From positions 145,569,246-145,633,245 of the forward strand of contig NC_073304.1 of the NCBI RefSeq assembly GCF_027595985.1: a stretch of 64,000 bases of DNA. The letters are read 5' to 3'. Under the pieces are notes generated by a model that had not been told where the DNA came from, made no database searches, and saw only the letters and a list, made by a program, of their open reading frames with translations. The position numbers were made by a program, and so were the translations under genes. Source of the DNA: Sorex araneus (Eukaryota > Chordata > Mammalia > Eulipotyphla > Soricidae). Of the stretch, positions 3,605-60,559 are shown in pieces; the first letter of the stretch is position 1, and every line of letters begins with the position of its first letter.

Positions 3605-3631
3605 TTATTTTTAATTTTAGTTTGGGGATAC
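3605..3631 (-). mobile_element. SOR SINE, 3' tail part, split by RTE copy A
   Basis: The T-rich tail and first bases of an antisense SOR SINE. Its other part lies at 7132-7285. The ten bases TTGGGGATAC end this part (3622-3631) and start the other (7132-7141), so they are the target-site duplication of the RTE insertion between them. Confidence 0.8.
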
Positions 3632-4677
3632 GTTGCTGCAGTAGTGCCAAAGAGCTCCCAGTTTGTGGTCATTCTGGGAGTTGCCTTCTTAGACTTAAAT
3701 TTTGCAGATCTTTCTCCCAGCTCTGTGAAGTAGAATTTTGCATGAAGGAGACAGTGGTCTGATTCCATTTGGAATTTTGGGACAATAGCAACATCGGTCA
3801 GGCAAAACCTTCTATTGAATATGATGTGGTCAATTTCATTGTGGAAATGTCCACTGGGAGACTCCCACGTCCAGCATTTAGATTTGGCCTTCTGGAACTG
3901 TGAGTTACCATGAATGGTCTTGGTTGACATGATAAATTTAGACAGTCTCTCACCCTGATCATTCCATTCTAGGCCATGGGTCCCAATGTGGAGTTCTTCA
4001 TGTGACCTCGGACCTATCTTGGCATTAAAATCACCAACAATGATCTTGTAGAAGGTGTGGTTTTCTTTATAGAACTTCTCCAGTTCCATGTAGAACCTCT
4101 CAATTTCTTCTTCATTATAGTTGGATGTTGGTGCATAGACGACGAAGATAGAAACTGCAGGCAGTGAGCCACATCTATTCAAGCATAATCGTCCAATTCC
4201 GGTTGTTAGGCATTCAAATGAATCGAGGCTCATGGCCAAGTTCTTGTTGACAAGGACACCAATGCCACCAACGCCTCTGTTGTCACATGTTCTGAGGAAC
4301 AATTCTTCTCCAGTGTTGAAAATGGTGTGATGTGATTGATGTCTCCTCATTTTGGTCAGACCAATGATATCATACTTGATCTTCTGCGCTTGCACCATCA
4401 GGTCCTCGATGGATGCTTCTGATGCCAGTGTCCGTGCATTGAAAGTACAGACAATCATTTTACTCTTTCTTCGTTTTGGCAGTCTCGTTTGTCCCCGAGA
4501 TTTTTTCAGCCTCTCCTTGCTCATCTTTCTTAACGATGCCGTATTGGGGACTCTTTTGGTGACATGTGAATGAGGCCAATTGTTTTTACTGTTGTTGGCA
4601 TATCGAATACTCAACAGGTAGCTTGGTAGTCTCTGCCGTGCGGCAAGATACTCTCGGTAGCTTGCCGGGCTCTCCAA
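3632..4677 (-). pseudogene. RTE endonuclease (APE type), copy A, inverted segment
   Basis: An open frame from 4677 runs downwards through an APE-like endonuclease, the enzyme that nicks target DNA to prime reverse transcription. Visible motifs are TFNARTL, YAPTSNYNEEE, VGDFNAKIG, NEIDHIIFNRR and SDHCLL. The Glu of the usual TETR motif is Lys here (GLTKMRR), so activity is probably lost. About 32 N-terminal residues (4582-4677) come from the stretch shared with the RTE-SINE, so the true start could be the Met of 'MSKERLKK' or later. After about 3635 the frame runs into flanking SOR sequence. It is detached from its RT by the inversion. Confidence 0.85.
4582..4676 (-). repeat. RTE 5' region shared with the RTE-SINE family
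   Basis: This block matches the middle of the RTE-SINE copies. For example 20 bases 'tcggtagcttgccgggctct' occur here (4654-4673) and in the SINE at 9878-9897. The match continues to 'catatcgaatac' and ends near 'gttgttggcatatc'. It lies directly upstream of the endonuclease, so it is RTE 5' sequence; insertion of a SINE is less likely because no tRNA head or 3' tail flanks it. Confidence 0.75.
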
Positions 4678-5104
4678 GAAGGAAGAAGGCTTTTAGGGCA
4701 GCCTCCAATCACCCTTAGATTGGTGTTACCATGGTTCACACCAAATTTGAACCCTATCAAATATGGTGTGGAAATAATGGGTATTAAGTGTTTTAAGGTG
4801 TCCGGAGAGTGGCCTGGAGCGTGGCGGTGGCTGGGTAGTGGATGTAGTGGGGTTCAGCCAGTGAGGTATTTATCTGGCGTGGGTAGGGTGGGGCGTCTGG
4901 GTTTGACCCTTCCCTCAGACGCCGGAGATTGGAGGAGGCAGACAGAGGACCTTTTTTCCAGGTCTCATTGAACCTAGAGTTCAATGAAGTTCAATGAAGG
5001 TCACAAAGTTCTCTTTACCTGGCTTTGCGGGGATTCACTCGTGCGTGAGGTTCAGCCCAAGTGTCCAGAGAGCTGCCTGAAGCGTGGCGGTGGTTGGGTA
5101 ATGG
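4677..5104 (-). other. RTE copy A 5' UTR with partly repeated unit
   Basis: Read on the - strand from 5104, this is GC-rich 5' UTR. The motif 'gcgtggcggtggytgggtart' occurs twice, at about 4818-4840 and 5078-5101, about 260 bp apart, suggesting slightly more than one tandem monomer. The same sequence is found at 53583-54170 and in the first 200 bp of the internally deleted RTE at 42898. A promoter role is inferred only. Confidence 0.6.
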
Positions 5105-7127
5105 AAAGATGCCATCCTTGACAACATCGACGAGGAATACGATCAACTGGTTCAGCACCTCCATGTCTGTGTGAAGAATGCCGAGAGTGAGAAAGCCACA
5201 AACAGATGCCTGTCTTTGGAAACTCTTGAGCTCATTCGTCAATGTGGTTTGGCGTGAGCCTCAGGCAACTACAAGCTAATGTCTGAGCTCACAAAGCTGT
5301 GCAGAGATTCGATAAAGGAAGACCTCAAAGAGAGAAGAGCAGCAGTGTTGGCCAGTGCAGCAGAAGCCGGGAAAAGTATTCACAATGCTCGCCTGTCCTT
5401 TGCCAACTACAAGACCAAGATGACTGCCCTCCGACATCCCAATGGATCTATCACATCTTCCAGAAAGGCAATGGAGAGGATTATTTATGACGTCTACTCA
5501 GATCTCTTTGACAGTCATGTCCACCTGCCCACATACCAAATACCGCAGGATGGATATGTCATTCCCAATGTTATCCCTTCTGAAATCCGACACGCCATTT
5601 TGTTGGTAAAGACACGTACAGCACTTGGTCCAGACAAGGTCAAACCTGAACACCTGAAGAATCTGCCGCCAGTACTCATCAATACACTGGCTCGACTCTT
5701 CACACGCTACCTGTCTGAATGCAAGGTTCCATCTCAGTGGAAAACCATTAGGACTATTCTGTTGTACAAGAAGGGATACATCCATGACATAGGCAACTAT
5801 CGCCCAATCTGCCTGCTGTCTGTCGTCTACAAGTTATTCACTCATGTCATCCTGAATAGAATAGGCAGAACACTAGATGAAGGACAACCATGTGAGCAAG
5901 CCAGGTTCTGAAGGGGATTCAGCACGATCGACCATATCCACACAGTGACCAAACTCATTGAAGTTTTGTTAGAGTTCAAGATGCCGCTCTGTCTAACATT
6001 CATCAACTTAAAGAAGGCCTTCAATTCTGTTGAGTCTGAGGTGATCATCGAAGCCCTGGCCAAAGAGGGCGTTCAAACTCAGTATATCAAAATCCTCCAT
6101 GAGCTGTATTGTGGATTCACCATCAGGCTCTCACCATTCTACAAGGAAGTGATCATTGATGTAAAGAGAGGGGTATGGCTATGGCAGGGTGATACAATTT
6201 CACTGAAACTCTTTAGTGCCACCTCGAGAACATCATGCGACAACTGGAATGGGAAGGAATGTGAGTGAAGATAGACGGTCGGCAATTATACCACCTCCAC
6301 TTTGCTGATGACATCGTTCTCATAATGCCAAACATTAGCCAAGTGGCACAAATTTTGGCCAACTTCGACCACGAGTGTGGAAAGGTCGGATTGCAGCTGA
6401 ATCTCAACAAGACGATGTTCGTGAAAAACAAACTGGTCCCTGAAGCTCCATTTGCTCTCAATGGAATGAATATCTCTGAATGCAGCAGCTATGTGTACCT
6501 GGGTCGAGAAATGAACATGAGGAACATGAAGAATCCACACAGGTGCCGGAACAGTGCAGGAGGAAGAGAGCAGCATGGAATGCATTCAAGAGCATCGAAG
6601 AAGTGATTAAGAGAACGAAGAACCTCTGACTCCGGGCACATCTTTTTGATTCCACCATTCTTCCTGCACTAACATATGCCTCAGAGACCTGGGCCCTACG
6701 CAAACAGGATGAGAATGCTATTAGAGTATCCCAAAGAGGAATCGAAAGAGCTATGCTGGGAATATCATGTCTCACTCAAGTGAGAGAAGGAATCCGGAGT
6801 TCTGACCTCCGTTGACGGTCAAAAATCAGGGATGCTGTTGCATTTGCCAAGGCATTCAAAAATCAGATGGGCCGGTCATGTAAAGTGATTCAGAGATGAC
6901 TGCTGGAGTAGAGCTGTTACCGACTGGATTCCACAGGACATCAGAAGACCTCATGGCCGCCCACCAACTAGATGGTCAGATTTCTTCGTCAAATCCCTGA
7001 ATGAGGCTCTTCCTGTTCCTGGAGCAAGCAGATATCATTGGGCTGCACTAGCATGCAACAGGGACAAATGGAGACATTACTGGCGCCTGCTTGAGCAAAT
7101 CGAAGATCAATGGGACTACAAGTGATA
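5105..7127 (+). pseudogene. RTE reverse transcriptase and C-terminal region, copy A
   Basis: Reads linker (EDAILDNIDEEYD), RT palm and fingers (GNYRPICLLSVVYKLFTHVI), motif A region, QGDTIS, FADDIVLI, then a C-terminal domain (ALTYASET..., [12 protein letters not shown]). It is broken: a stop follows CEQARF at 5911, one C is lost in 'gccacctcgag' (6218-6228), a TGA lies at 6262-6264, and there are further frameshifts after 6530. Motif A reads FINLKKAFNSVE where copy B has FIDLKKAFDSVE, so the metal-binding Asp is lost. The lost C and the TGA are shared with copy B. Confidence 0.9.
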
Positions 7128-7131
7128 CAAG
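7067..7131 (+). repeat. RTE 3' terminus homologous to RTE-SINE tail
   Basis: The last codons and 3' end of RTE copy A. Seventeen bases 'aatggagacattactgg' (7067-7083) are identical to the RTE-SINE at 11173-11189, and the match continues through 'gagcaaatcga'. The element ends in 'acaagtgatacaag', a short repeat tail with no poly(A). This is the probable recognition end for the RTE reverse transcriptase. Confidence 0.8.
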
Positions 7132-7285
7132 TTGGGGATACACCTAGGGTGCTCAGGGGTCACTGATGGCTCTGTACTCAGGACCCACTCTTGGTTGGGC
7201 TTAGGAGACCATATGGGGTGCCAGGGACTGAACCTGGTTTGGCTCATGTAAGGCCTTACCCATTGTACATTCCTTCTGGCCTCCA
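7132..7285 (-). mobile_element. SOR SINE, remainder after RTE insertion
   Basis: Continues the antisense SOR from 3631: 'gctcaggggtcac', 'ggagaccatatggggtgccag', then the tRNA-like part ending in 'ttctggcctcc'. It starts with the second copy of the TTGGGGATAC duplication. Confidence 0.85.
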
Positions 7286-8846: not shown

Positions 8847-9015
8847 TTTTTCTTTTTGGGTCACACCCAGCAATGCTCAGGGGTTACTCCTGGATTTTGC
8901 ACTCAGGAATTACTCCTGGTGGTGCTTGGGGGACCATATGGGATGCCAGGGATTGAACCCGAGTCAGCCAAGTGCAAGGCAAACGCCCTACCTGCTGTGC
9001 TATCGCTCCGGCCCC
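8847..9015 (-). mobile_element. SOR SINE with 14-bp duplication
   Basis: A well preserved antisense copy from the T-rich tail ('ctttttgggtcacaccc') to 'gctatcgctccggcccc'. TTGATAGTGTTTTT at 8833-8846 and 9016-9029 is a perfect target-site duplication. The internal pol III A and B boxes lie near the right end and are readable, so transcription is possible in principle. Confidence 0.95.
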
Positions 9016-9029
9016 TTGATAGTGTTTTT

Positions 9030-9727: not shown

Positions 9728-9958
9728 ACGTATCACTGTATCACTATCATTCCATTGCTCATTGATTTGCTCGACCGGACACCAGTAATGTCTCCACTGT
9801 GAGACTTGTTACTGCTTTTGGCATAGCAAATATGCCATGGGTAGCTTGCCAGGCTCTGCTGTGCAGGTTAGATATTCTCGGTAGCTTGCCGGGCTCTCTG
9901 AGAGAGGTGGAGGAATCAAACCCACGTCAGCCTCGTGCAAGGCGAACGACCTACACAC
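9728..9958 (-). mobile_element. RTE-SINE (tRNA head plus RTE 5' and 3' ends)
   Basis: On the reverse strand it runs from a tRNA-like head through the RTE 5'-derived block (9815-9905) and RTE 3'-derived block (9745-9810) to a TACAGTGATA-type tail. It has no poly(A). Its 5' end runs into an (AC)n/(AT)n microsatellite. Confidence 0.8.
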
Positions 9959-10389: not shown

Positions 10390-10735
10390 TTTTTTCCTTT
10401 CCTTTCCTTTCCTTTCCTTTCCTTTCCTTTCCTTTCCTTTCCTTTCCTTTCCTTTCCTTTCCTTTCCTTTCCTTTCCTTTCCTTTCCTTTCCTTTCCTTT
10501 CCTTTCCTTTCCTTTCCTTTCCTTTCCTTTCCTTTCCTTTCCTTTCCTTTCCTTTCCTTTCCTTTCCTTTCCTTTCCTTTCCTTTCCTTTCCTTTCCTTT
10601 CCTTTCCTTTCCTTTCCTTTCCTTTCCTTTCCTTTCCTTTCCTTTCCTTTCCTTTCCTTTCCTTTCCTTTCCTTTCCTTTTCCTTTGTTTTCCTTTCCTT
10701 TCCCTTTGTTTTCCTTTCCTTTCCCTTTGTTTTCA
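10390..10735 (+). repeat. (CCTTT)n pentanucleotide array, about 57 near-perfect units
   Basis: A nearly perfect pentamer array from about 10395 to 10680, followed by degenerate units with CCCTTTGTTTT interruptions to 10735. The 202-codon and 185-codon frames across it are low-complexity artefacts. Homogeneity suggests recent expansion. Confidence 0.97.
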
Positions 10736-10988: not shown

Positions 10989-11250
10989 TTGGACTGGAGC
11001 AATAGCACAGCACGTAGGGCATTTGCCTTTCACATGGCCAACCTGGGTTTGGTTCCTTCGGCCCTCTCAGAGAGCCCAGCCAGCTACTAAGAGTATCCTG
11101 CCTGCACAGCAGAGCCTGGCAAGCTACCCGTGGCATACTTGATATGCCAAAAATAGTAACAACAAGTCTCACAATGGAGACATTACTGGTGCCCACTCAA
11201 GCAAATCGATGAACAACGAGATGACAGTGACAGTGCTACAGTGCTAATAA
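10989..11250 (+). mobile_element. RTE-SINE
   Basis: A full-length sense copy. The head 'ggactggagcaatagcacag' starts at 10991, followed by a B box 'gggtttggttcc', the RTE 5' block ('cagagagcccagccagctac'), the RTE 3' block (from 11173) and a tail of GACAGTGACAGTGCTACAGTG repeats. It is the clearest copy for comparison with RTE copy A. Confidence 0.9.
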
Positions 11251-12965: not shown

Positions 12966-13830
12966 CACTGTTCATAATAGCCAGAACCTGGAAAAGACCT
13001 GAGTGCCTGAGAACAGATGTCTGGTTAATAAACTTTGGTACATCTACACAATGGAAACTATGCAACTGTTAGAAAAGATTAAATCATGAAATTTGCATGT
13101 AAGTGGATGGACATGGAGAGAGTCATACTAAATAAAGTGAGTCAGAAAGAGGGATAGACACAAAATGGAATATAAAGTAATGTAATAGGAAACTAACACC
13201 TAAGGATAATAGAGATAAAGGCCAGGAGGATTGCACCACGGCTTGGAAGTCGGCCTCACATGGTGGTGGAAAAGGCAGCTGGGATAGAAAAGGGAGCACT
13301 AGGGGCTGGAGTGATAGCACACCGGGTAGGGCGTTTGCCTTGCACGCGGCCGACCCGGGTTCAAATCCCAGCATCCCATATGGTCCCCTGAGCACTGCCA
13401 GGGGTGATTCCTGAGTGCATGAGCCAGGAGTGATCCCTGTGCATTGCCGGGTGTGACCCAAAAAGAAAAAAAAAAAAAGAAAAGGGAGCACTAAGTAAAT
13501 GGTGGCTGGAGGGATTACTTGGCATGGGAGATGTATGCTAAAAGTAGACTATAGACCAGATATGATGGCCTTTTAGTGCCTGTATTGCAAACCACACATC
13601 CAAAAGGAGAGAGAGAGTAAGAGGGAGTGTTCCTGATACAGGGGGTGGGAAGGGGTGGGAGATGGCCGGAGGAATACTGGGAACATTGGTGGTGGAGAAT
13701 GGGTACTGGTAGAGGGTTGGGTACTTGATAATTGTATGACTGAAATATAATCATAAAAGTTTGTAAGTCTGTAACTGTATCTCACAGTGATTCAATTTAA
13801 AAAAGGGGGGAAAAAAGAAAAAAATAATAG
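12966..13830 (+). mobile_element. L1 3' fragment, interrupted by a SOR SINE
   Basis: Sense L1 from the end of ORF2 ('cactgttcataatagccaga') through the 3' UTR ('ggagaatgggtactggtaga') to an A-rich end near 13830. The SOR SINE at 13302-13477 splits it. Confidence 0.9.
13302..13477 (+). mobile_element. SOR SINE with 16-bp duplication
   Basis: A young, near-consensus copy with the head 'ggggctggagtgatagcaca', B box 'gggttcaaatccc', and an A-rich tail. AGAAAAGGGAGCACTA at 13286-13301 and 13478-13493 is a perfect 16-bp target-site duplication within the L1. Confidence 0.97.
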
Positions 13831-16576: not shown

Positions 16577-16582
16577 TGTGAT

Positions 16583-18247
16583 CTTTGATTTGCTCGAATG
16601 GGCGGCAGTAACGTCGCCATTTGTCCCTGCCACGTGCTAGTGCAGCCCAATGATATCTGCTTGCTCCAGGAACAGGAAGAGCCTCAAATTGTTCATTCAG
16701 GGATTTGACGAATAAATCTGACCATCTAGTTGGGGGGCGGCCATGAGGTCTTCTGAAGTCCTGTGGAATCCAGTAGGAAACCACTCTAGTCCACCAGTCA
16801 TCTCTGAATCGCATTACATGACCGGCCCATCTGATTTTTGATGCCTTGGCAAATGCGACAGTGTCCCTGAATCTTGACCATCGACGGAGGTCAGAACTCC
16901 GGATTCCTTCTCTCACTTGAGTGAGATGTGATACTCCTACTATAGCTCTTTTGATTCCTCTTTGGGATACTCTAATAGCATTCTCATCCTGTTTGCGTTG
17001 AGTCCAGGTCTCTGAGGAGTATGTTAGTGCAGGAAGAACGGTGGCATCAAGAAGATGTGCCCAGAGTCGGAGGTTCTTTGTCCTCTTAACCACTTCTTCG
17101 ATGCTCTTGAAGGCATTCCACGCTGCTCTCTTCCTCCTGCACAGTTTATTCCTCCTGCCAAGTCATTCCTCATGTTGATTTCTCGACCCAGGTACACATA
17201 ACTGCTGCATTCAGAGATGTTCATTCCATTGAGAACAAATGGATCCTCAGGGACTAGTTCATTTTTCATGAGCATCGTCTTGTTGAGATTCAGCTGCAAT
17301 CCGACCTTTCCACACTCGTGGTCGAAGTTGGCCAAAATTTGTGCCACTTGGCTAATGTTTGGCATTATGAGAGCGATGTCATCAGCAAAGTGGAGGTGGT
17401 GTAATTGCCGACCGTCTATCTTCACTCACATTCCTTCCCATTCCAGTTGTCGCATGATGTTCTCGAGGTGGCACTGAAGAGTTTCAGTGAAATTGTATCA
17501 CCCTGCCATACCCCTCTCTTTACATCAATGATCACTTCCTTGTAGAATGGTGAGAGCCTGGTGGTGAATCCACAATACAGCTCATGGAGGATTTTGATAT
17601 ACTGAGTTTGAATGCCCTCTTTGGCTAGGGCTTTGATGACTGCTTCAGTCTCAACAGAATCGAAGGCCTTCTTTAAGTCGATGAACGTTAGACAGAGCGG
17701 CATCTTGAACTCTTACAAAACTTCAGTGAGTTTGGTCACTGTGTGGATATGGTCGATCATGCTGAATTCCCTTCAGAACCCATCTTGCTCGCATGGTTGT
17801 CCTTCATCTAGTGTTCTGCCTATTCTATTCAGGATGACATGAGTGAATAACTTGTAGACGACAGACAGCAGGCAGATTGGGCGATAGTTAACTATGTCGT
17901 GGATGTCTCCCTTGTACAACAGAACGGTCCTACTGGTTTTCCAGTGAGACGGAACTTTGCATTCAGACAGGTAATGTGTAAAGAGATGAGCCAGTCTATT
18001 GATGAGTACTGGCGGCAGATTCTTCAGGTGTTCAGGTCTGACCTTGTCCAGACCAGATGCTGTATGCGTCTTTACCAATGAAATGGCATGTCGGATTTCA
18101 GAAGGGAGGACATTGGGTATGACATATCCATCCTGCAGAATTTGGTATGTGGGTAGGTGGACGTGGCTGTCAAAGAGATCCAAGTAGAAGTCGTGAACAA
18201 TCCTCTCCATTACCTTTCTGGAATATGCGAGAGATCCATCAGGTGTC
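16583..18247 (-). pseudogene. RTE reverse transcriptase and C-terminal region, copy B
   Basis: Reading down from 18247: RT start (SRKVMERIVHDFYLDLFDSH), NYRPICLLSVVYKLF, FIDLKKAFDSVETE (motif A intact), GVWQGDTIS, HFADDIALIMP, NISECSSYVYLGREIN, then the C-terminal region (LPALTYSSETW, KIRWAGHVMRF, HWAALARGRDKWRRYCRP). Lesions include the same missing C in 'gccacctcgag' and the same TGA after 'ggaatg' as copy A, plus further frameshifts near 17090-17150 and 17730. Arg of the usual RQGD is Trp in both copies. Confidence 0.9.
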
Positions 18248-19020
18248 CTTGTCAACACGAATATGGCCATGAGCACTGATTCATTCGAATTCCTAACAAC
18301 CCGAATCAGATGATCATGCTTAAATAGATGTGGCTCACTGCCTGTAGTTTCTATCTTCGCCATCTACGCACCAACATCCAACTACAATGAAGAAGAAATT
18401 GAGAGTTTCTACATGCGATAACTAACAGTTTCAGAAGGCCAAATCTAAACGCTGGACATGGGAGTCTCCCAGTGGACAGTTCGACAATGAAATTGACCAC
18501 ATCATATTCAATCAAAGGTTTTGCTTGACTGATGTCGCTGTTGTCCCAAAATTCCAAATGGGATCGGACCACCGTCTCTCCTTCGTGCAAAATTCTACTT
18601 CACAGAGCAGGGAGAAAGATCTACAAAATTTAAGTTTAAGAGGGCAACTTCCAGAATGACCACCAACTGGGAACTCTTTGGCACTATTGCACCAATGTGG
18701 GAAGATGCTATCCTTGACAACATTGACGAGGAATACGATTGACTGGTTCAGCACCTCCATGTCTGTGTGAAGAATGCGAAGAGTGAGAAAGCCACAAACA
18801 GACACCTGTCTTTGGAAACTCTCGAGCTCATTCGTCAACGTGGTTTGGCGCGAGCCTCAGCTAACGTCCGAGCTCATATAGCTGTGAAGAATTGCGATAA
18901 AGGAAGACCTCAAAGAGAGAAGAGCAGCAGTGTTGGCCAGGGCAGCAGAAGCTGGGAAAAGTATTCGCAATGCTCGCCTGTCCTTTGCCAACTACAAGAC
19001 CAAGACGACTGCCCACCGAC
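18248..19020 (+). pseudogene. RTE endonuclease C-terminal half and linker, copy B, inverted segment
   Basis: Reads GVLVN, IYAPTSNYNEEEIE, then after an internal deletion of about 150 bp the stretch with NEIDHIIFNQRF and SDHR, NWELFGT, and the linker EDAILDNIDEEYD to 'TTAHR'. The deletion removes the GDFNAKIG motif present in copy A. Stops and a frameshift near 18590 inactivate it. Confidence 0.85.
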
Positions 19021-19420
19021 AGGGATTATATTGAGTGAAAAAGCCAGTCCCCTAAGTTGCATGCTGTATGAATGGATATTTTGAAATGGAAAAAATATAT
19101 AGAGAAATGAAGAATGGAATAGATTTTCAAGGTGGGGGAAGGGTGAGAGGCCAATGTGTGTGACCATAATGGACAATAGAAATGTCCTTGTGGTGGTTAA
19201 TGGAAATGTGCTGTGTATTGATTGCAAAGGTCCCTTTTTTGGTTATGATATTGCTTTATAGCTCTGTAAGATGTTATCATTGGGGAAACTGCATAAAGGT
19301 TACAAGGGATATTTCTGTGTTACTTCATATTTCATACTTCATGCAGATCAAACTGCAAAACAAAAAGTTTAAAACAAAGAAGAGAGGTCTAAGCACAAAT
19401 CTATTATCATTGCAAAAATT

Positions 19421-41897: not shown

Positions 41898-42142
41898 GCA
41901 ATAAGCACAGTGGGTAGGGCGTTTGCCTTTGATGCGGCCTACCTGGGTTCGATTTCTCTCTACCTCTTGGAGAGCCCGACAAGCTACCAACAGTATCTTG
42001 CCCACATGGCAGAGCATTAGAAGCTACTTATGGCATATTAGATATGCCAAAAATAGTAACAAGTCTCACAATGGAGACATTACTGATGCCCGCTTGTACA
42101 AATCAATAAACAATAGGATGACAGTGCTACAGCACTATATTA
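41898..42142 (+). mobile_element. RTE-SINE
   Basis: Sense copy with a 5'-shortened tRNA head ('agcacagtgggtagggcgtt'), RTE 5' block ('ttggagagcccgacaagcta'), RTE 3' block ('caatggagacattactgatg') and GACAGTGCTACAGCAC tail. Confidence 0.88.
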
Positions 42143-42897: not shown

Positions 42898-43397
42898 GCC
42901 CACACACCTGGATGTCTTCCTTGGGGCCTCTCAGAGGGGATGGGCTCCAGCTTCCCTCCCCACCCCGAGCAGAGCTCCCGGTGGCCGAAGACCACTGGAA
43001 CCTAGCCACAGCCATGCTCAAGGCCCCTCTCCGCACGTTCGGACAAGCCTCACGCATGAAGGTACCGGCAGAGGAACCCAAGTGTTTGTAATCCCATCAA
43101 CAACAGTCAACATCCAGAGACTTAAAAGCAAGTTCTTCCCTCTGGGAGAAACTAACAAGCTACTGAGTTTCCTGCCCACATGGGACATCCTTGCAAGCTT
43201 CCCATGATGTATCCATATGCCAAAGCCAGTAACCAGCTGTATCTCATTCCCCTGACCCTGAAAGAGCCTCCAATGCGCCATGGTTGGGAAGGCCGAGTAG
43301 AGAGGCTTCTAAAATCTCAGAGATAGGATGAATGGAGAGGTTACTGAGAGTGCTCAAGCAATTTGACGATCAACGGGATTTTGTGATTGTGATTGTG
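42898..43397 (+). mobile_element. Internally deleted RTE (500-bp nonautonomous form) with 10-bp duplication
   Basis: The first part matches the RTE 5' UTR (gccacagccatgctc..., cctcacgcatgaagg), then the 5' block shared with the SINE ('ttccctctgggagaaactaa'), a block also at 53280-53340 ('ccctgaccctgaaagagcct'), and the RTE 3' end ('aatggagaggttactgagag', 'gagtgctcaagcaatttgac') with a TTGTGATTGTGATTG tail. AACCCACCTT at 42888-42897 and 43398-43407 is the target-site duplication. It has no tRNA head and no coding region. Confidence 0.85.
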
Positions 43398-43835: not shown

Positions 43836-44094
43836 TATCACTGTCACTGTCACTGTCACTGTCATCCCATTGCTCATCGATTTGTTCGAGCGGGCACCAG
43901 TAACGTCTGTCATTGAGAGACTTATTGTTACTGTTTTGGGCATATCCAATACTCGTGGGTAGCTTGCCAGGCTCTGCCGCGCAGACTCGATACTCTCAGT
44001 AGCTTGCTGGGCTCTACGAGAGGGGTGGAGGAATCGAACTCGGGTCTGCCCCATGAAAGGCGAACGCCCAACCGCTGTGCTATCGCTCCAGTCC
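43836..44094 (-). mobile_element. RTE-SINE with 7-bp duplication
   Basis: Complete antisense copy: tail (TCACTG)n at 43836-43862, RTE 3' block, RTE 5' block, and tRNA head ending 'gctatcgctccagtcc'. TACACAG at 43829-43835 and 44095-44101 is the likely target-site duplication. Near consensus, so young. Confidence 0.92.
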
Positions 44095-46810: not shown

Positions 46811-46974
46811 AGGGCTGGAGCAATAGCACAGCAGGTAGGGCATTTGCCTTGCACTCGGCTGACCCGGGTTCGATTCCCAGCATCCCATATGGTCCCCTGA
46901 GCACCGCCAGGGGTGATTCCTGAGTGCAGAGCCAGGAGTAATCCCTGTGCATCACCAGGTGTGACCCAAAAAGC

Positions 46975-47066
<92 letters not shown>

Positions 47067-50884: not shown

Positions 50885-51057
50885 GGGGGCTAGAGTGATA
50901 GCATAATGGGTAGGGCATTTGCCTTGCACTCGGCAGGCCCGGGTTCAATTCCCAGCTTCCCATATGGTCCTCTGAGCACTGCCAGGAGTAATTCCTGAGT
51001 GCAAAGCCAGGAGTAACCCCTGAGCATCACTGGGTGTGACCCAAAAAGTAAAAAAAT
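50884..51057 (+). mobile_element. SOR SINE with short duplication
   Basis: Near-consensus sense copy ('ggggctagagtgatagcata' to 'gtgtgacccaaaaagtaaaa'). AATGTGTG at 50876-50883 and 51058-51065 is the likely duplication; low complexity there makes its length uncertain. Confidence 0.95.
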
Positions 51058-52330: not shown

Positions 52331-52526
52331 ACAAGAGACTGCCTACTTGGAAAACAGGTTGACCCAGATAATCTTATGATTTTATAAAACTGAAGGCCAT
52401 GGAGATCTCATTCAGCCTTCAGTATTTTCAGAATGTCTCTGAAACCACAAGTGAAGGCTTGCATTGAGGCACCTTTCACTTCCACTGGAGTCAAGTGGAA
52501 CCTCTTTTCCTATAGTATTTGGACTG
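52331..52526. other. Unassigned
   Basis: No recognised gene or repeat. Confidence 0.3.
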
Positions 52527-52611
52527 TATCACTGTATCACTGTCATCTCATTGTTCATCAATTTACTTGAGCAGCTCCAGTAACATCTCCATTCGTCCCA
52601 GCCCTGAGACT

Positions 52612-53257
52612 TTATTTATTTATTTATTTATTTTTAATTATTTATTTTATTGAATCATCATGTGGAAAGTTACAAAGTTCTCAGGCTTCTGTCTCAGCTA
52701 TACAATGCTCAAACACCCGTCCCTTCACTAGTGCCTATATTCCACCACCAAAAACCCCAGTATACCTCCCACCCCCCTCCCCTCCACCCCCACCTGCGTA
52801 ACTGATAAATTTCACTTCATTTTCTCTTTACCTTGATTAAATTCCATATTTCAACACAAAACTCACTATTGTTGTTGGAGTTTCCCCTCCAGAAAAAAAC
52901 AGCCCTACTGACCAGGAAGCATTTGATAATTAGTGTTCCATTGCTGAGAAAGAAGAGACATGAAGTCACGTGGCTGCTACCTTAGGATTTAGGATTTCTG
53001 TATTTTAGTATTTTAGTAATTAAGTTCAGGGAGATTTATGTTAGAAATTGCATCATTTCCCTTCCTGGGGCAGTATGGGGTAATGGCTTAGATCACAGTC
53101 TAGAGACATGGCTGCAAGCAGTTTCTGGGACCAAAAGTAGTCTAGCTGGCCTCCAGATCATGGTCAATCAGCAGCAAAGCGGCCGCACCAAAGTGTGTCC
53201 GCCTGGGTCGAGTCTCAGCGGAGCATGAGCACGTATCGGCCCCGGCCCAAGACTCCC
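52612..53257 (-). mobile_element. Composite nonautonomous element (copy 3), complete, with target duplication
   Basis: On the - strand: GC-rich 5' start ('cttgggccggggccgatacg'), a middle shared with copy 2 ('caatggaacactaattatca', 'caacaacaatagtgagtttt'), the L1-type 3' terminus and a (TAAA)n tail. CCCAGCCCTGAGA flanks it (52598-52610 and 53258-53270). At about 646 bp it appears full length and defines the ends of the family. Confidence 0.8.
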
Positions 53258-53445
53258 AGCCCTGAGATTTCAGTAGCCTCTCCTTAATCGTCTTTCCCAA
53301 TTATTGGAGGCTCCTTCAGGGTCAGGGGATGAGACCTGTTATTGTTACTGTTTTGGGCATACCAAATACACCACAGGGAGCTTGCCAGGCTCTGCCATGC
53401 GGGTGGGATACTCTTGGTAGCTTGTCAGGCTCTCCAAAGGATATA

Positions 53446-54211: not shown

Positions 54212-54388
54212 CATTATTATTGCTTTTGGGGTCACACCCAGCAATTCTCAGGGGCTCTTCCTGGCTCTTCACTCAGGAATTACTCCTGGCGATGCTGGGG
54301 GACCATATGGGATGCCAGGGATCAAACACAGGTTGGCCATGTTTAAGGCAAACACCCTACCTGTTGTGCTATTGCTCGGCCCCCAAAG
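54183..54388 (-). mobile_element. SOR SINE with (TAA)n tail
   Basis: Antisense SOR; its tail is a (TTA)n run (54183-54222) on the + strand. TGGATTATT at 54174-54182 and 54389-54397 is the likely duplication. Confidence 0.93.
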
Positions 54389-56089: not shown

Positions 56090-56451
56090 TGTATCACTGT
56101 ATCACTGTCATCCCGTTTTGCTCAAGCAGGCACCAGTAACTTCTCCATGGTGAGACTTGTTGTTACTGTTTCTGGCATATCAAATACGCCACGGGTAGCT
56201 TGCCAGGCTCTGCCATGTAGGCGGGATACTCTCAGTAGCTTGCTGGGCTCTCTGAGAGGGATGGAGGAATTGAACCCGGGTCTGCCTATACAAGGCAATA
56301 CAATACTATACAAGGCAAATGCCCTACCTGCTGTGCTATTGCTCCAGCCCCTTTGTCTAGGGTAAGGTGTGGTCTAGGGATGTAGTCTAGGGTGGAGACG
56401 GGATCTGGGCAGGGGCATGGTCTGGATAGAGGCATGGTCTAGGGTAGGGGC
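56090..56451 (-). mobile_element. RTE-SINE with a 5' minisatellite extension, 14-bp duplication
   Basis: The antisense SINE is 56090-56353; on its 5' side 56354-56451 is a run of TCTAGGGTaggggcatgg-type repeats. CTAAAGGTTTATCC at 56076-56089 and 56452-56465 encloses both, so the extension arrived with the SINE or grew afterwards. Inserted in the inverted part of the L1. Confidence 0.9.
56354..56451 (+). repeat. Minisatellite at SINE 5' end
   Basis: Five or so variants of 'ggtctagggt.ggggc.tggt' of 15-24 bp each. Confidence 0.7.
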
Positions 56452-59509: not shown

Positions 59510-59943
59510 TTCAGTTTTTTAATCCATTTTGTCAATCTGTGTCTCTTCTTAATTGGTGCATTTAGCTCATTGACATTGAGAGAGATTATTGTCATGGGGC
59601 TCTGTTCCATCTTTCTGTAGAGGTTTGTTGTGCTGGTAGGGGTGTTTCTTGTCTTACAGTAGCCCTTTCAGTCCTCCTCCTTTTATGGTCTGTTTTGAGT
59701 CTATAAAGTTCCTTAGTTGTTGTTTATCCATGAAATAGTGTATCGTCCCTTCAAGTCTGAGTGACTCTGGCCAGATAAAGTATTCTTGGTGACACATTAA
59801 TTTCAGTAAGTTTTTTCACTATATCCCACCACTGTCTATAGGCTTGAATGGTTTCCTCTGATAAATCTGCTATAAATCTAAGGGATGCTCATTTATATGT
59901 GATTTTCTTCCTTGATATTAGTGCTTGCAGTGTTGTTCTCTAT
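59510..59943 (-). mobile_element. L1 fragment, antisense (ORF1 end to ORF2 start)
   Basis: Matches 32455-32870 in the full-length L1 ('tagctcattgacattgagag', 'attattgtcatggggctctg'). It ends abruptly at 'gttctctat', where the provirus starts with TGTAGG. Confidence 0.88.
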
Positions 59944-59974
59944 TGTAGGATATCATTGGTTTGTCCTTCTGTCC

Positions 59975-60480
59975 AAACAATTGGCCTTTGAAAATGCTAA
60001 TGAGGATTGCCAGGCCATCCTGTGCCCCATTAAGGAGAAGGAGGATATTATGGGGTACTTGAAGGCATGTAGGAATGTTGGTTCTATCAAACATCAGGCA
60101 CGTATTAATGCTGTTGAGGCCTATGCCATACAGAGGCAAGATAAGGGCAAATGTTTTAATTGTGGGAGATCAGGCCACTTTCGTAAGGACTGTAGGGCAC
60201 CTCCATGTTGCATGTGCACTGAAAAAGAATGTGTATTTGATTTATGGGGATAAAAAGTTCTGTATACATGTATTCGCCCTCTCTGTTCCATTTCTTTTTA
60301 GAGCCAGGACTTCCTTGCTGAGATTTAGTCTTGTTGATCTGTCAAGAAGTGATAAGGTAGTATTGAAGTCTCTGCCTACTATTGTGTTACTAACAATGTG
60401 CCAGTCTGAGAACACCACCTGGACCTTGTCCACGATGGCGTAAGGGAACCCATTGGGCCAGAGATTGTCCCTTCAATTTT
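59975..60480 (+). pseudogene. ERV gag remnant (capsid end and nucleocapsid)
   Basis: The open frame shows the capsid major-homology-like region (LAFENANEDCQAIL) and one CCHC zinc knuckle (CFNCGRSGHFRKDC, about 60150-60192). The second knuckle is interrupted at 60212 by antisense L1 sequence and gag-like sequence resumes at 60401 in a different frame. The first part of gag is deleted. Confidence 0.85.
60212..60401 (-). mobile_element. L1 ORF2 endonuclease fragment inside the gag remnant
   Basis: About 180 bp matching 31945-32145 of the full-length L1 ('gaaaaagaatgtgtatttga', 'aagtgataaggtagtattga'), antisense. It has no A tail. ATGTGC occurs at both edges (60212-60217 and 60396-60401). Confidence 0.85.
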
Positions 60481-60559
60481 GCCGCAGCTGGTGACCCTGA
60501 TTTGGGAAACTTGCAGTGGGGCCAGCCCCAGGCCCCGCAAAATCAGGGGACATTCCCAG

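What the first reader, a model, noticed from the sequence alone, without database searches (positions are those of the whole stretch)
10989..11250. A SINE family built from a tRNA head plus both ends of the RTE
Seen: RTE-SINE copies at 9728, 10989, 41898, 43836 and 56090 share 'aatggagacattactgg' and following bases with the RTE 3' end (7067-7110), and 'tcggtagcttgccgggctct' with the RTE 5' region (4654-4673). Their tails are CAGTGA-type repeats, not poly(A). Known: Bov-tA SINEs took BovB ends in a similar way. Inference: after entering shrews the RTE acquired its own tRNA-headed SINE parasite, in parallel with ruminants.
Basis: partly seen in the sequence, partly recalled or inferred. Interest (0 to 1): 0.92.

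Follow-up and report, generated by a model that had tools for sequence, protein, structure and literature searches.

The report
Shrew SINE riding a nematode-type LINE
A very abundant short mobile element in this shrew genome has the front of the shrew's own tRNA-derived element joined to two pieces of a long mobile element whose closest relatives are in parasitic worms; the kind is known, but this case shows how an element thought to have come from another species gains its own parasites.

Summary
All five SINE copies are real and both shared blocks exceed chance. Genome-wide the SINE junction occurs 68,612 times, reversed control 0; a 199-kb sample suggests about 266,000 copies, 2.3% of sequence. 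The consensus is a SOR-type tRNA head, about 118 nt from inside the RTE 5'UTR, then the last ~60 nt of the RTE. Tails carry CAGTG-type units and are rarely poly(A); 10 of 28 full-head copies have target-site duplications of at least 10 bp against 0.44 expected. The main refuter, SINE insertion into the RTE, is rejected: the 5' block lies upstream of the endonuclease in strongylid nematode RTEs, clearly in one of 8 testable proteins and modestly in two. SINE and LINE ages overlap. New here: headless, internally deleted "mini-RTEs", whose 5' block matches the SINE at 93 of 94 sites, so the SINE probably formed when a SOR head joined a mini-RTE. Bipartite RTE-mobilised SINEs are known from BovB, AviRTE and hagfish RTEs: a new member of a known kind. 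Repeat libraries and other mammals could not be searched.

The parts
10991..11250 (+). RTE-SINE copy of the finding: SOR-type tRNA head about 10991-11056, RTE 5'UTR block about 11055-11172, RTE 3'-end block 11173-11232, then a CAGTG tail
   Evidence: profile hit 1-242, E 2.9e-79; tail
43854..44094 (-). RTE-SINE copy, tail (CAGTGA)n; 7-bp flanking repeat CTGTGTA
56098..56350 (-). RTE-SINE copy, the least diverged of those in window plus random sample
9737..9956 (-). RTE-SINE copy, 5'-truncated in the head (model position 22)
41898..42131 (+). RTE-SINE copy, starts at model position 9
3632..7131 (.). RTE LINE copy 1, a single insertion with its 5' half inverted (5'UTR and endonuclease on the minus strand, 3' half with RT on plus)
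   Evidence: 10-bp target-site duplications 3622-3631 and 7132-7141
4580..4689 (-). 5'UTR block of the LINE that is shared with the SINE
   Evidence: blastn 78%, E 1.6e-20
7067..7131 (+). 3'-end block of the LINE shared with the SINE: last codons of the ORF, stop TGA 7123-7125, 6-nt 3'UTR
16579..19021 (-). RTE LINE copy 2, also 5'-inverted (inverted part 18242-19021); the match stops short of the LINE's last bases
43123..43390 (+). Headless bipartite mini-RTE of the older group
52513..53437 (-). Headless bipartite mini-RTE of the younger group, interrupted by an A-tailed insertion between two copies of TCTCAGGGCTGGGA (52596-52609, 53254-53267)
13301..13468 (+). SOR-type SINE, family of the head donor; ARAGORN calls its head tRNA-Ala(TGC). 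Others at 8849-9017 -, 46812-46976 +, 50886-51051 +, 54220-54383 -

Best explanation
This is a chimeric SINE family mobilised by the RTE LINE. Inferred route: (1) an RTE LINE of strongylid-nematode type became established in the shrew lineage; (2) internal deletion produced headless bipartite mini-RTEs (5'UTR plus 3' end); (3) the head of the resident SOR SINE, with Pol III A- and B-box motifs, was joined in front of a further shortened mini-RTE, probably by template switching during reverse transcription; (4) Pol III transcripts ending in the RTE 3' block are recognised by the RTE reverse transcriptase and inserted by target-primed reverse transcription. Shown here: the architecture, copy number, target-site duplications, tail type, overlapping ages, closeness to the mini-RTE, and the presence of the 5' block in at least one nematode RTE protein record. 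Inferred: RTE-protein dependence, Pol III transcription, template switching, and the order of steps 2 and 3.
For: Head: 58 of 60 nt equal the SOR consensus and the match ends at about GATTCC; A- and B-box motifs present. 5' block: 93 of 94 identical to the younger mini-RTE consensus, against 83 of 93, 84 of 94 and 63 of 74 for three single LINE copies. 3' block, ungapped: 57 of 60 to mini-RTE, 51 of 60 to LINE, the latter lowered by one indel. Target-site duplications of 10 bp or more in 10 of 28 against 0.44 expected; at least one CAGTG-type unit in 50 of 53. Junction counts: SINE 68,612, LINE 8,197, controls 0. LINE endonuclease: best hits Sorex fumeus (84, 79, 73%), then unnamed records and strongylids such as Necator 68%, Ancylostoma 71%, Haemonchus 70%. 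5' block against back-translated Haemonchus contortus P0108: 50, shuffle maximum 24.
Against: No functional test. A conserved stem in the 3' block was not supported: z-scores -0.93 to +0.15 for four sequences. The LINE age rests on 6 copies. The mini-RTE against LINE comparison sets a consensus against single decayed copies. SINE against mini-RTE is not strictly ancestor-descendant: the SINE keeps LINE-like GAGCAAATC where the mini-RTE has GAGTAAATC. No head match was found within 150 nt upstream of any of 14 mini-RTE places, so no headed full mini-RTE intermediate was found. Five of 8 nematode or unnamed proteins did not clearly show the 5' block.
Confidence: 0.85

Rival explanations
1. The SINE formed directly from the full LINE (SOR RNA plus LINE RNA, two template jumps), and mini-RTEs are a side branch.
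For: The SINE keeps LINE-like GAGCAAATC in the 3' block. Other internal deletions and jumps occur: L037 at 4991-4743; a second deletion form shared by L027 and L040; and L028, where the head is joined straight to the 3' block.
Against: The 5' block is 93 of 94 identical to the mini-RTE and 84 of 94 at best to a LINE copy. SINE and younger mini-RTE share CAGTGA in place of CAAGTGA, and GGTGCC in place of GGCGCC. LINE 5' blocks are single decayed copies, so part of that gap is copy decay.
Confidence: 0.25
2. The shared blocks arose the other way: a SINE inserted into, or donated sequence to, the RTE.
For: Only sequence sharing as such.
Against: The 5' block is found upstream of the endonuclease in nematode proteins: P0108 (Haemonchus) 50 against shuffle maximum 24; P0012 (Necator) 30.4 against 24.4; P0014 (Angiostrongylus) 28.8 against 22.4; each 0 of 40 shuffles. 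The other five of the 8 testable proteins were not clearly above shuffles. The 3' block encodes the RT C-terminus, ending WRRYWRPLEQIDDQRDDR in a Nippostrongylus protein; a WRxYWxP-type motif is in 34 of 120 listed hits.
Confidence: 0.02
3. The SINE is an ordinary L1-mobilised SOR subfamily that picked up RTE sequence by chance.
For: The head is SOR's, and SOR copies read end in A-rich runs (window 8849-9017; L037 and L040).
Against: An A-run of 7 or more near the end in only 2 of 53 copies; CAGTG-type units, like the LINE's own terminal CAAGTGATACAAG, in 50 of 53.
Confidence: 0.05

Closest known systems
AviRTE-mobilised SINEs (ManaSINE1, GymnSINE and others; Suh et al. 2016, PMC4844689, passages seen)
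   Same: Promoter-bearing head plus a bipartite tail made of part of the RTE 5'UTR and the 3'UTR; the partner RTE is shared with nematodes by horizontal transfer; short 3'UTR.
   Different: Other hosts (birds), other heads (tRNA-Glu, 5S, 28S, GC-rich). In the passages seen no head taken from a resident SINE is described.
Bov-B-mobilised SINEs (Gogolevsky et al. 2008, seen only as a reference; Bov-tA and Ped details recalled)
   Same: SINE 3' part built from a 5' and a 3' region of an RTE-clade LINE.
   Different: The partner is BovB, not the nematode-type RTE.
Hagfish SINE1-1_EBu and SINE2-9/10_EBu (PMC7245038, 2020, passages seen)
   Same: Same birth model: internal deletion of an RTE gives a bipartite non-autonomous element, then a head is acquired.
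   Different: Different RTE families and host.
RTE1_Sar LINE (Dunemann and Wasmuth 2019, PMC6542046; abstract, parts 1-2 of 6, sections 10 and 11 read)
   Same: RTE of a shrew with strongylid nematode relatives; very likely the partner LINE here.
   Different: The word SINE occurs 0 times in the main text held. The Repbase consensus was not available for a direct match.
Sor SINE of shrews (PMC8608897 Table 1 and PMC8466645, passages seen)
   Same: Head: 58 of 60 nt.
   Different: Sor's own body is absent; different tail and, by inference, a different LINE partner.

Membership tests
Bipartite RTE-mobilised SINE | Pol III promoter head (A and B boxes) | tested here: met
   both motifs in the consensus; 58 of 60 nt to the SOR head; ARAGORN finds no tRNA in the consensus; transcription not tested
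Bipartite RTE-mobilised SINE | Block from the partner LINE 5'UTR | tested here: met
Bipartite RTE-mobilised SINE | 3' end shared with the partner LINE | tested here: met
Bipartite RTE-mobilised SINE | Short-repeat rather than poly(A) tail, and target-site duplications | tested here: met
Bipartite RTE-mobilised SINE | Partner LINE in the same genome with overlapping age | tested here: met
   only 6 LINE copies
Bipartite RTE-mobilised SINE | Retrotransposition in trans by the RTE protein | not testable with these tools
   needs a cell assay
RTE1_Sar (partner LINE) | Match to the Repbase RTE1_Sar consensus | not testable with these tools
   Repbase not held
RTE1_Sar (partner LINE) | Closest relatives in strongylid nematodes and Sorex | tested here: met
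   120 of 411 hits listed; the only mammals named are Sorex fumeus and S. araneus; 120 of 429 listed; nematodes and unnamed records, no Sorex named
RTE1_Sar (partner LINE) | Absent from other mammals | not tested
   no other mammal genome held; reported in PMC6542046 for hedgehog, solenodon and mole
Sor SINE | Sor body downstream of the tRNA head | tested here: not met
   homology to SOR stops at about GATTCC

The most novel reading that the evidence does not exclude
An undescribed shrew SINE family, in which a resident SINE head changed partner from L1 to a nematode-derived LINE by joining an internally deleted, headless derivative of that LINE, and then outnumbered the LINE at least eight to one in junction counts (68,612 against 8,197, the latter including some deletion derivatives).
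Probability: 0.45. Interest if true: 0.62.

Novelty: new member of a known kind. Interest (0 to 1): 0.5.

Why it matters
It adds a further case in which an RTE reported as horizontally transferred was exploited by a host-made bipartite SINE, here with the LINE, at least two headless deletion forms and the final SINE all present in one genome. That makes 'internal deletion first, head second' testable, and turns RTE-SINE age and distribution across shrews into a clock for the LINE's arrival.

Tried and rejected
Tried without result: viral contigs for the 3' block, for a Bov-B tail motif and for the endonuclease, all empty. A conserved 3' stem was not supported. ARAGORN found no tRNA in the SINE and SOR consensus sequences, although it calls one genomic SOR copy tRNA-Ala. 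Of 20 pieces fetched 3 kb upstream of LINE-junction places, one element shows a clear 5' block (L067; L066 covers the same element) and one a weak partial match (L055, E 5.9e-7), so no LINE 5' consensus was possible. The counts for the mini-RTE and head junctions did not complete. Rejected: SINE insertion into the RTE; L1 mobilisation; chance similarity. Print: ten paper searches and the passages I saw of 12 papers showed no RTE-derived SINE in shrews. Repbase, Dfam and SINEBase could not be searched, Gogolevsky 2008 was seen only as a reference, and the 2018 paper on SINE bodies from LINEs (PMC5786205) was not held. Mended on checking: one of 28 profile hits first counted as SINE (L040, 2870-2701) is a deletion derivative like L027; counts, ages and extrapolation were redone without it and no conclusion changed.

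Full report
Observation. The five SINE copies and the two blocks shared with the RTE are in the window as stated and far above chance. The RTE copy at 3632-7131 is one insertion with an exact 10-bp target-site duplication, and its 5' half is inverted. That is why the 5' block lies on the minus strand at 4580-4689 while the 3' block lies on plus at 7067-7131; relative to the element both have the SINE's orientation. Of six protein pieces of the two LINE copies given to Pfam, one matches the endonuclease (PF03372, PF14529) and one the reverse transcriptase (PF00078); four match nothing.

Which genome. The window lies in G000, 2.406 Gb in 65 contigs, unnamed. That it is a Sorex shrew is an inference: the best protein matches of the LINE endonuclease are Sorex fumeus (84%), with S. 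araneus also listed, and SOR-type SINEs in the window carry the published shrew SINE primers (two exact, one at one mismatch, at the best window copies; two of the three are not exact in my SOR consensus).

Copy number. The 17-mer has 38,549 exact places. The SINE junction, allowing the CpG states of one site, has 68,612 and the LINE junction 8,197; all reversed controls are 0. The LINE pattern also catches deletion derivatives (the L027 place is among its hits), so the LINE number is an upper figure for that pattern. Of 29 17-mer sites read, of 38,549, I class 22 as SINE, 2 as LINE (L001, L019), 3 as mini-RTE (L012, L021, L023), 1 as another deletion form (L027, plus strand) and 1 as a tRNA head joined straight to the 3' block (L028). 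In the window plus 20 evenly spaced 10-kb pieces of contig C1, the SINE profile finds 42 places with the 3' block: 28 SINE (27 spanning the junction plus one split), 6 LINE, 5 mini-RTE, 2 other deletion forms (L037, L040) and 1 unclassified (hand-classed). The 22 junction-spanning copies in 199,229 random bases extrapolate to about 266,000 genome-wide (Poisson 95% range 166,000-402,000). Their lengths (added by hand, 4,525 bases) are about 2.3% of the sample. The sample is from one contig only.

Anatomy. The consensus is: head 1-66, 58 of 60 nt identical to the SOR consensus with identity ending at about GATTCC, A and B box motifs present; then about 118 nt of RTE 5'UTR; then, directly, the RTE 3' end. 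The 5' block is not the extreme end of the LINE: L067, a non-inverted LINE piece 3 kb upstream of a LINE 3' end, matches the window LINE at 90% over 304 nt that include the block and at 96% over 69 nt reaching 57 nt further upstream, where the piece ends. The 3' block is the coding end of the ORF plus a 6-nt 3'UTR; in nematodes the same stretch encodes the protein's last residues (motif in 34 of 120 listed hits, 27 of them ending at the same distance).

Mode of spread. One search took 53 places: 51 SINEs and two deletion derivatives (L027, L040). At least one CAGTG-type unit is at the end of 50 of 53, two or more in 39 (my count of the listing), an A-run of 7 or more in 2. Target-site duplications of 10 bp or more occur in 10 of 28 full-head copies against 0.44 expected from swapped flanks, and of 6 or more in 17 against 2.9. 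This fits target-primed insertion with RTE-type tails. A conserved RNA stem was not supported.

Direction of sharing. Of the 120 endonuclease proteins listed, eight have at least 35 residues upstream of the endonuclease start. Back-translated, three score above all 40 shuffles against the SINE 5' block (Haemonchus P0108 strongly; Necator P0012 and Angiostrongylus P0014 modestly); five do not clearly do so, and two of those, P0004 and P0006, reach only a short way upstream. So the block belonged to the RTE before it was in the SINE.

Mini-RTEs. Of 12 partial 5' matches of at least 130 nt that are not LINE copies, 11 stop at the same point of the LINE (position 197 of the query) and continue with the 3' block: headless, internally deleted derivatives. 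No head match lies within 150 nt upstream of 14 such places. I divided 13 of them into an older group with GAT- or GTGATT-type tails and a younger group with mostly CAGTGATA-type tails (L021, the two L037 forms, L027 and L040 were left out). A second deletion form is shared by L027 and L040 (50 of 53 nt across its junction). The younger consensus matches the SINE 5' block at 93 of 94 sites; single LINE copies reach 83 of 93, 84 of 94 and 63 of 74. Divergences without CpG sites: SINE mean 0.079, median 0.070 (n=27; with L040 0.080 and 0.070, n=28); LINE mean 0.084, median 0.079 (n=6; with two 17-mer-selected copies added, 0.076 and 0.075); mini-RTE 0.112 (n=8) and 0.125 (n=5) to their own group consensus, 0.165 to a common one. 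SINE against LINE p=0.37; SINE below younger mini-RTE p=0.003, below all 13 p=0.0005; LINE against mini-RTE p=0.07. Four of the 13 mini-RTEs come from the 17-mer loci, not from the random sample, and small-sample consensus sequences bias these values downward. So the SINE is not older than the LINE, and mini-RTEs look older than the SINE.

Known and new. The LINE is very likely RTE1_Sar, reported as horizontally transferred between strongylid nematodes and the common shrew (PMC6542046, parts read; that paper holds the direction, nematode to shrew, as likely but not proved); identity with the Repbase entry was not testable. Bipartite RTE-mobilised SINEs are an established kind: AviRTE SINEs (PMC4844689, passages), hagfish SINEs with the same 'internal deletion, then head' model (PMC7245038, passages), and BovB SINEs (Gogolevsky 2008, reference only, details recalled). 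The shrew family was not found in the papers searched, but repeat libraries were out of reach. Hence: new member of a known kind, with unusually complete intermediates.

Noticed in passing
window 3632-7131 and 16579-19021; L048 8220-8114: Both RTE LINE copies in the window carry 5' inversions with different breakpoints, and one SINE copy (L048) has an inverted 5' piece, as twin priming would produce.
   Followed up: partly
L028 around 1001; L027 around 2554; L040 2870-2701; L037 4991-4743: Other rearranged forms: a tRNA head joined straight to the RTE 3' block at a shared CAC, a second internal deletion shared by L027 and L040, and a third in L037. Template jumping or deletion seems frequent with this RTE.
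   Followed up: partly
window 43123-43390; L031 628-824; L042 2172-1979; L043 4649-4455: Several mini-RTEs share an upstream stretch CAGAGACT(A)TAAAA, possibly a TATA-like promoter of the RTE 5'UTR; some end in GAT-type repeats.
   Followed up: no
window 13307-13379: ARAGORN's tRNA-Ala(TGC) call lies in a SOR-type SINE, so it is probably not a tRNA gene.
   Followed up: yes
window 59912-60552: ORF with a zinc-knuckle-like motif, and an Rfam Gag/pro frameshift site (RF01097) at 60504-60552: probable retroviral gag/pro remnant. Described only.
   Followed up: no
window 10396-10680: Long (TTTCC)n tandem repeat near the SINE of the finding (read by eye).
   Followed up: no
SINE consensus 5' block: From memory, Bov-tA SINEs of ruminants contain a similar stretch; if real, RTE 5' blocks of distant families would resemble each other. 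Recalled lead, not tested.
   Followed up: no
53 places: Tails fall into three styles (CAGTGA, CAGTGATA, CAGTGCTA repeats), perhaps subfamilies.
   Followed up: no
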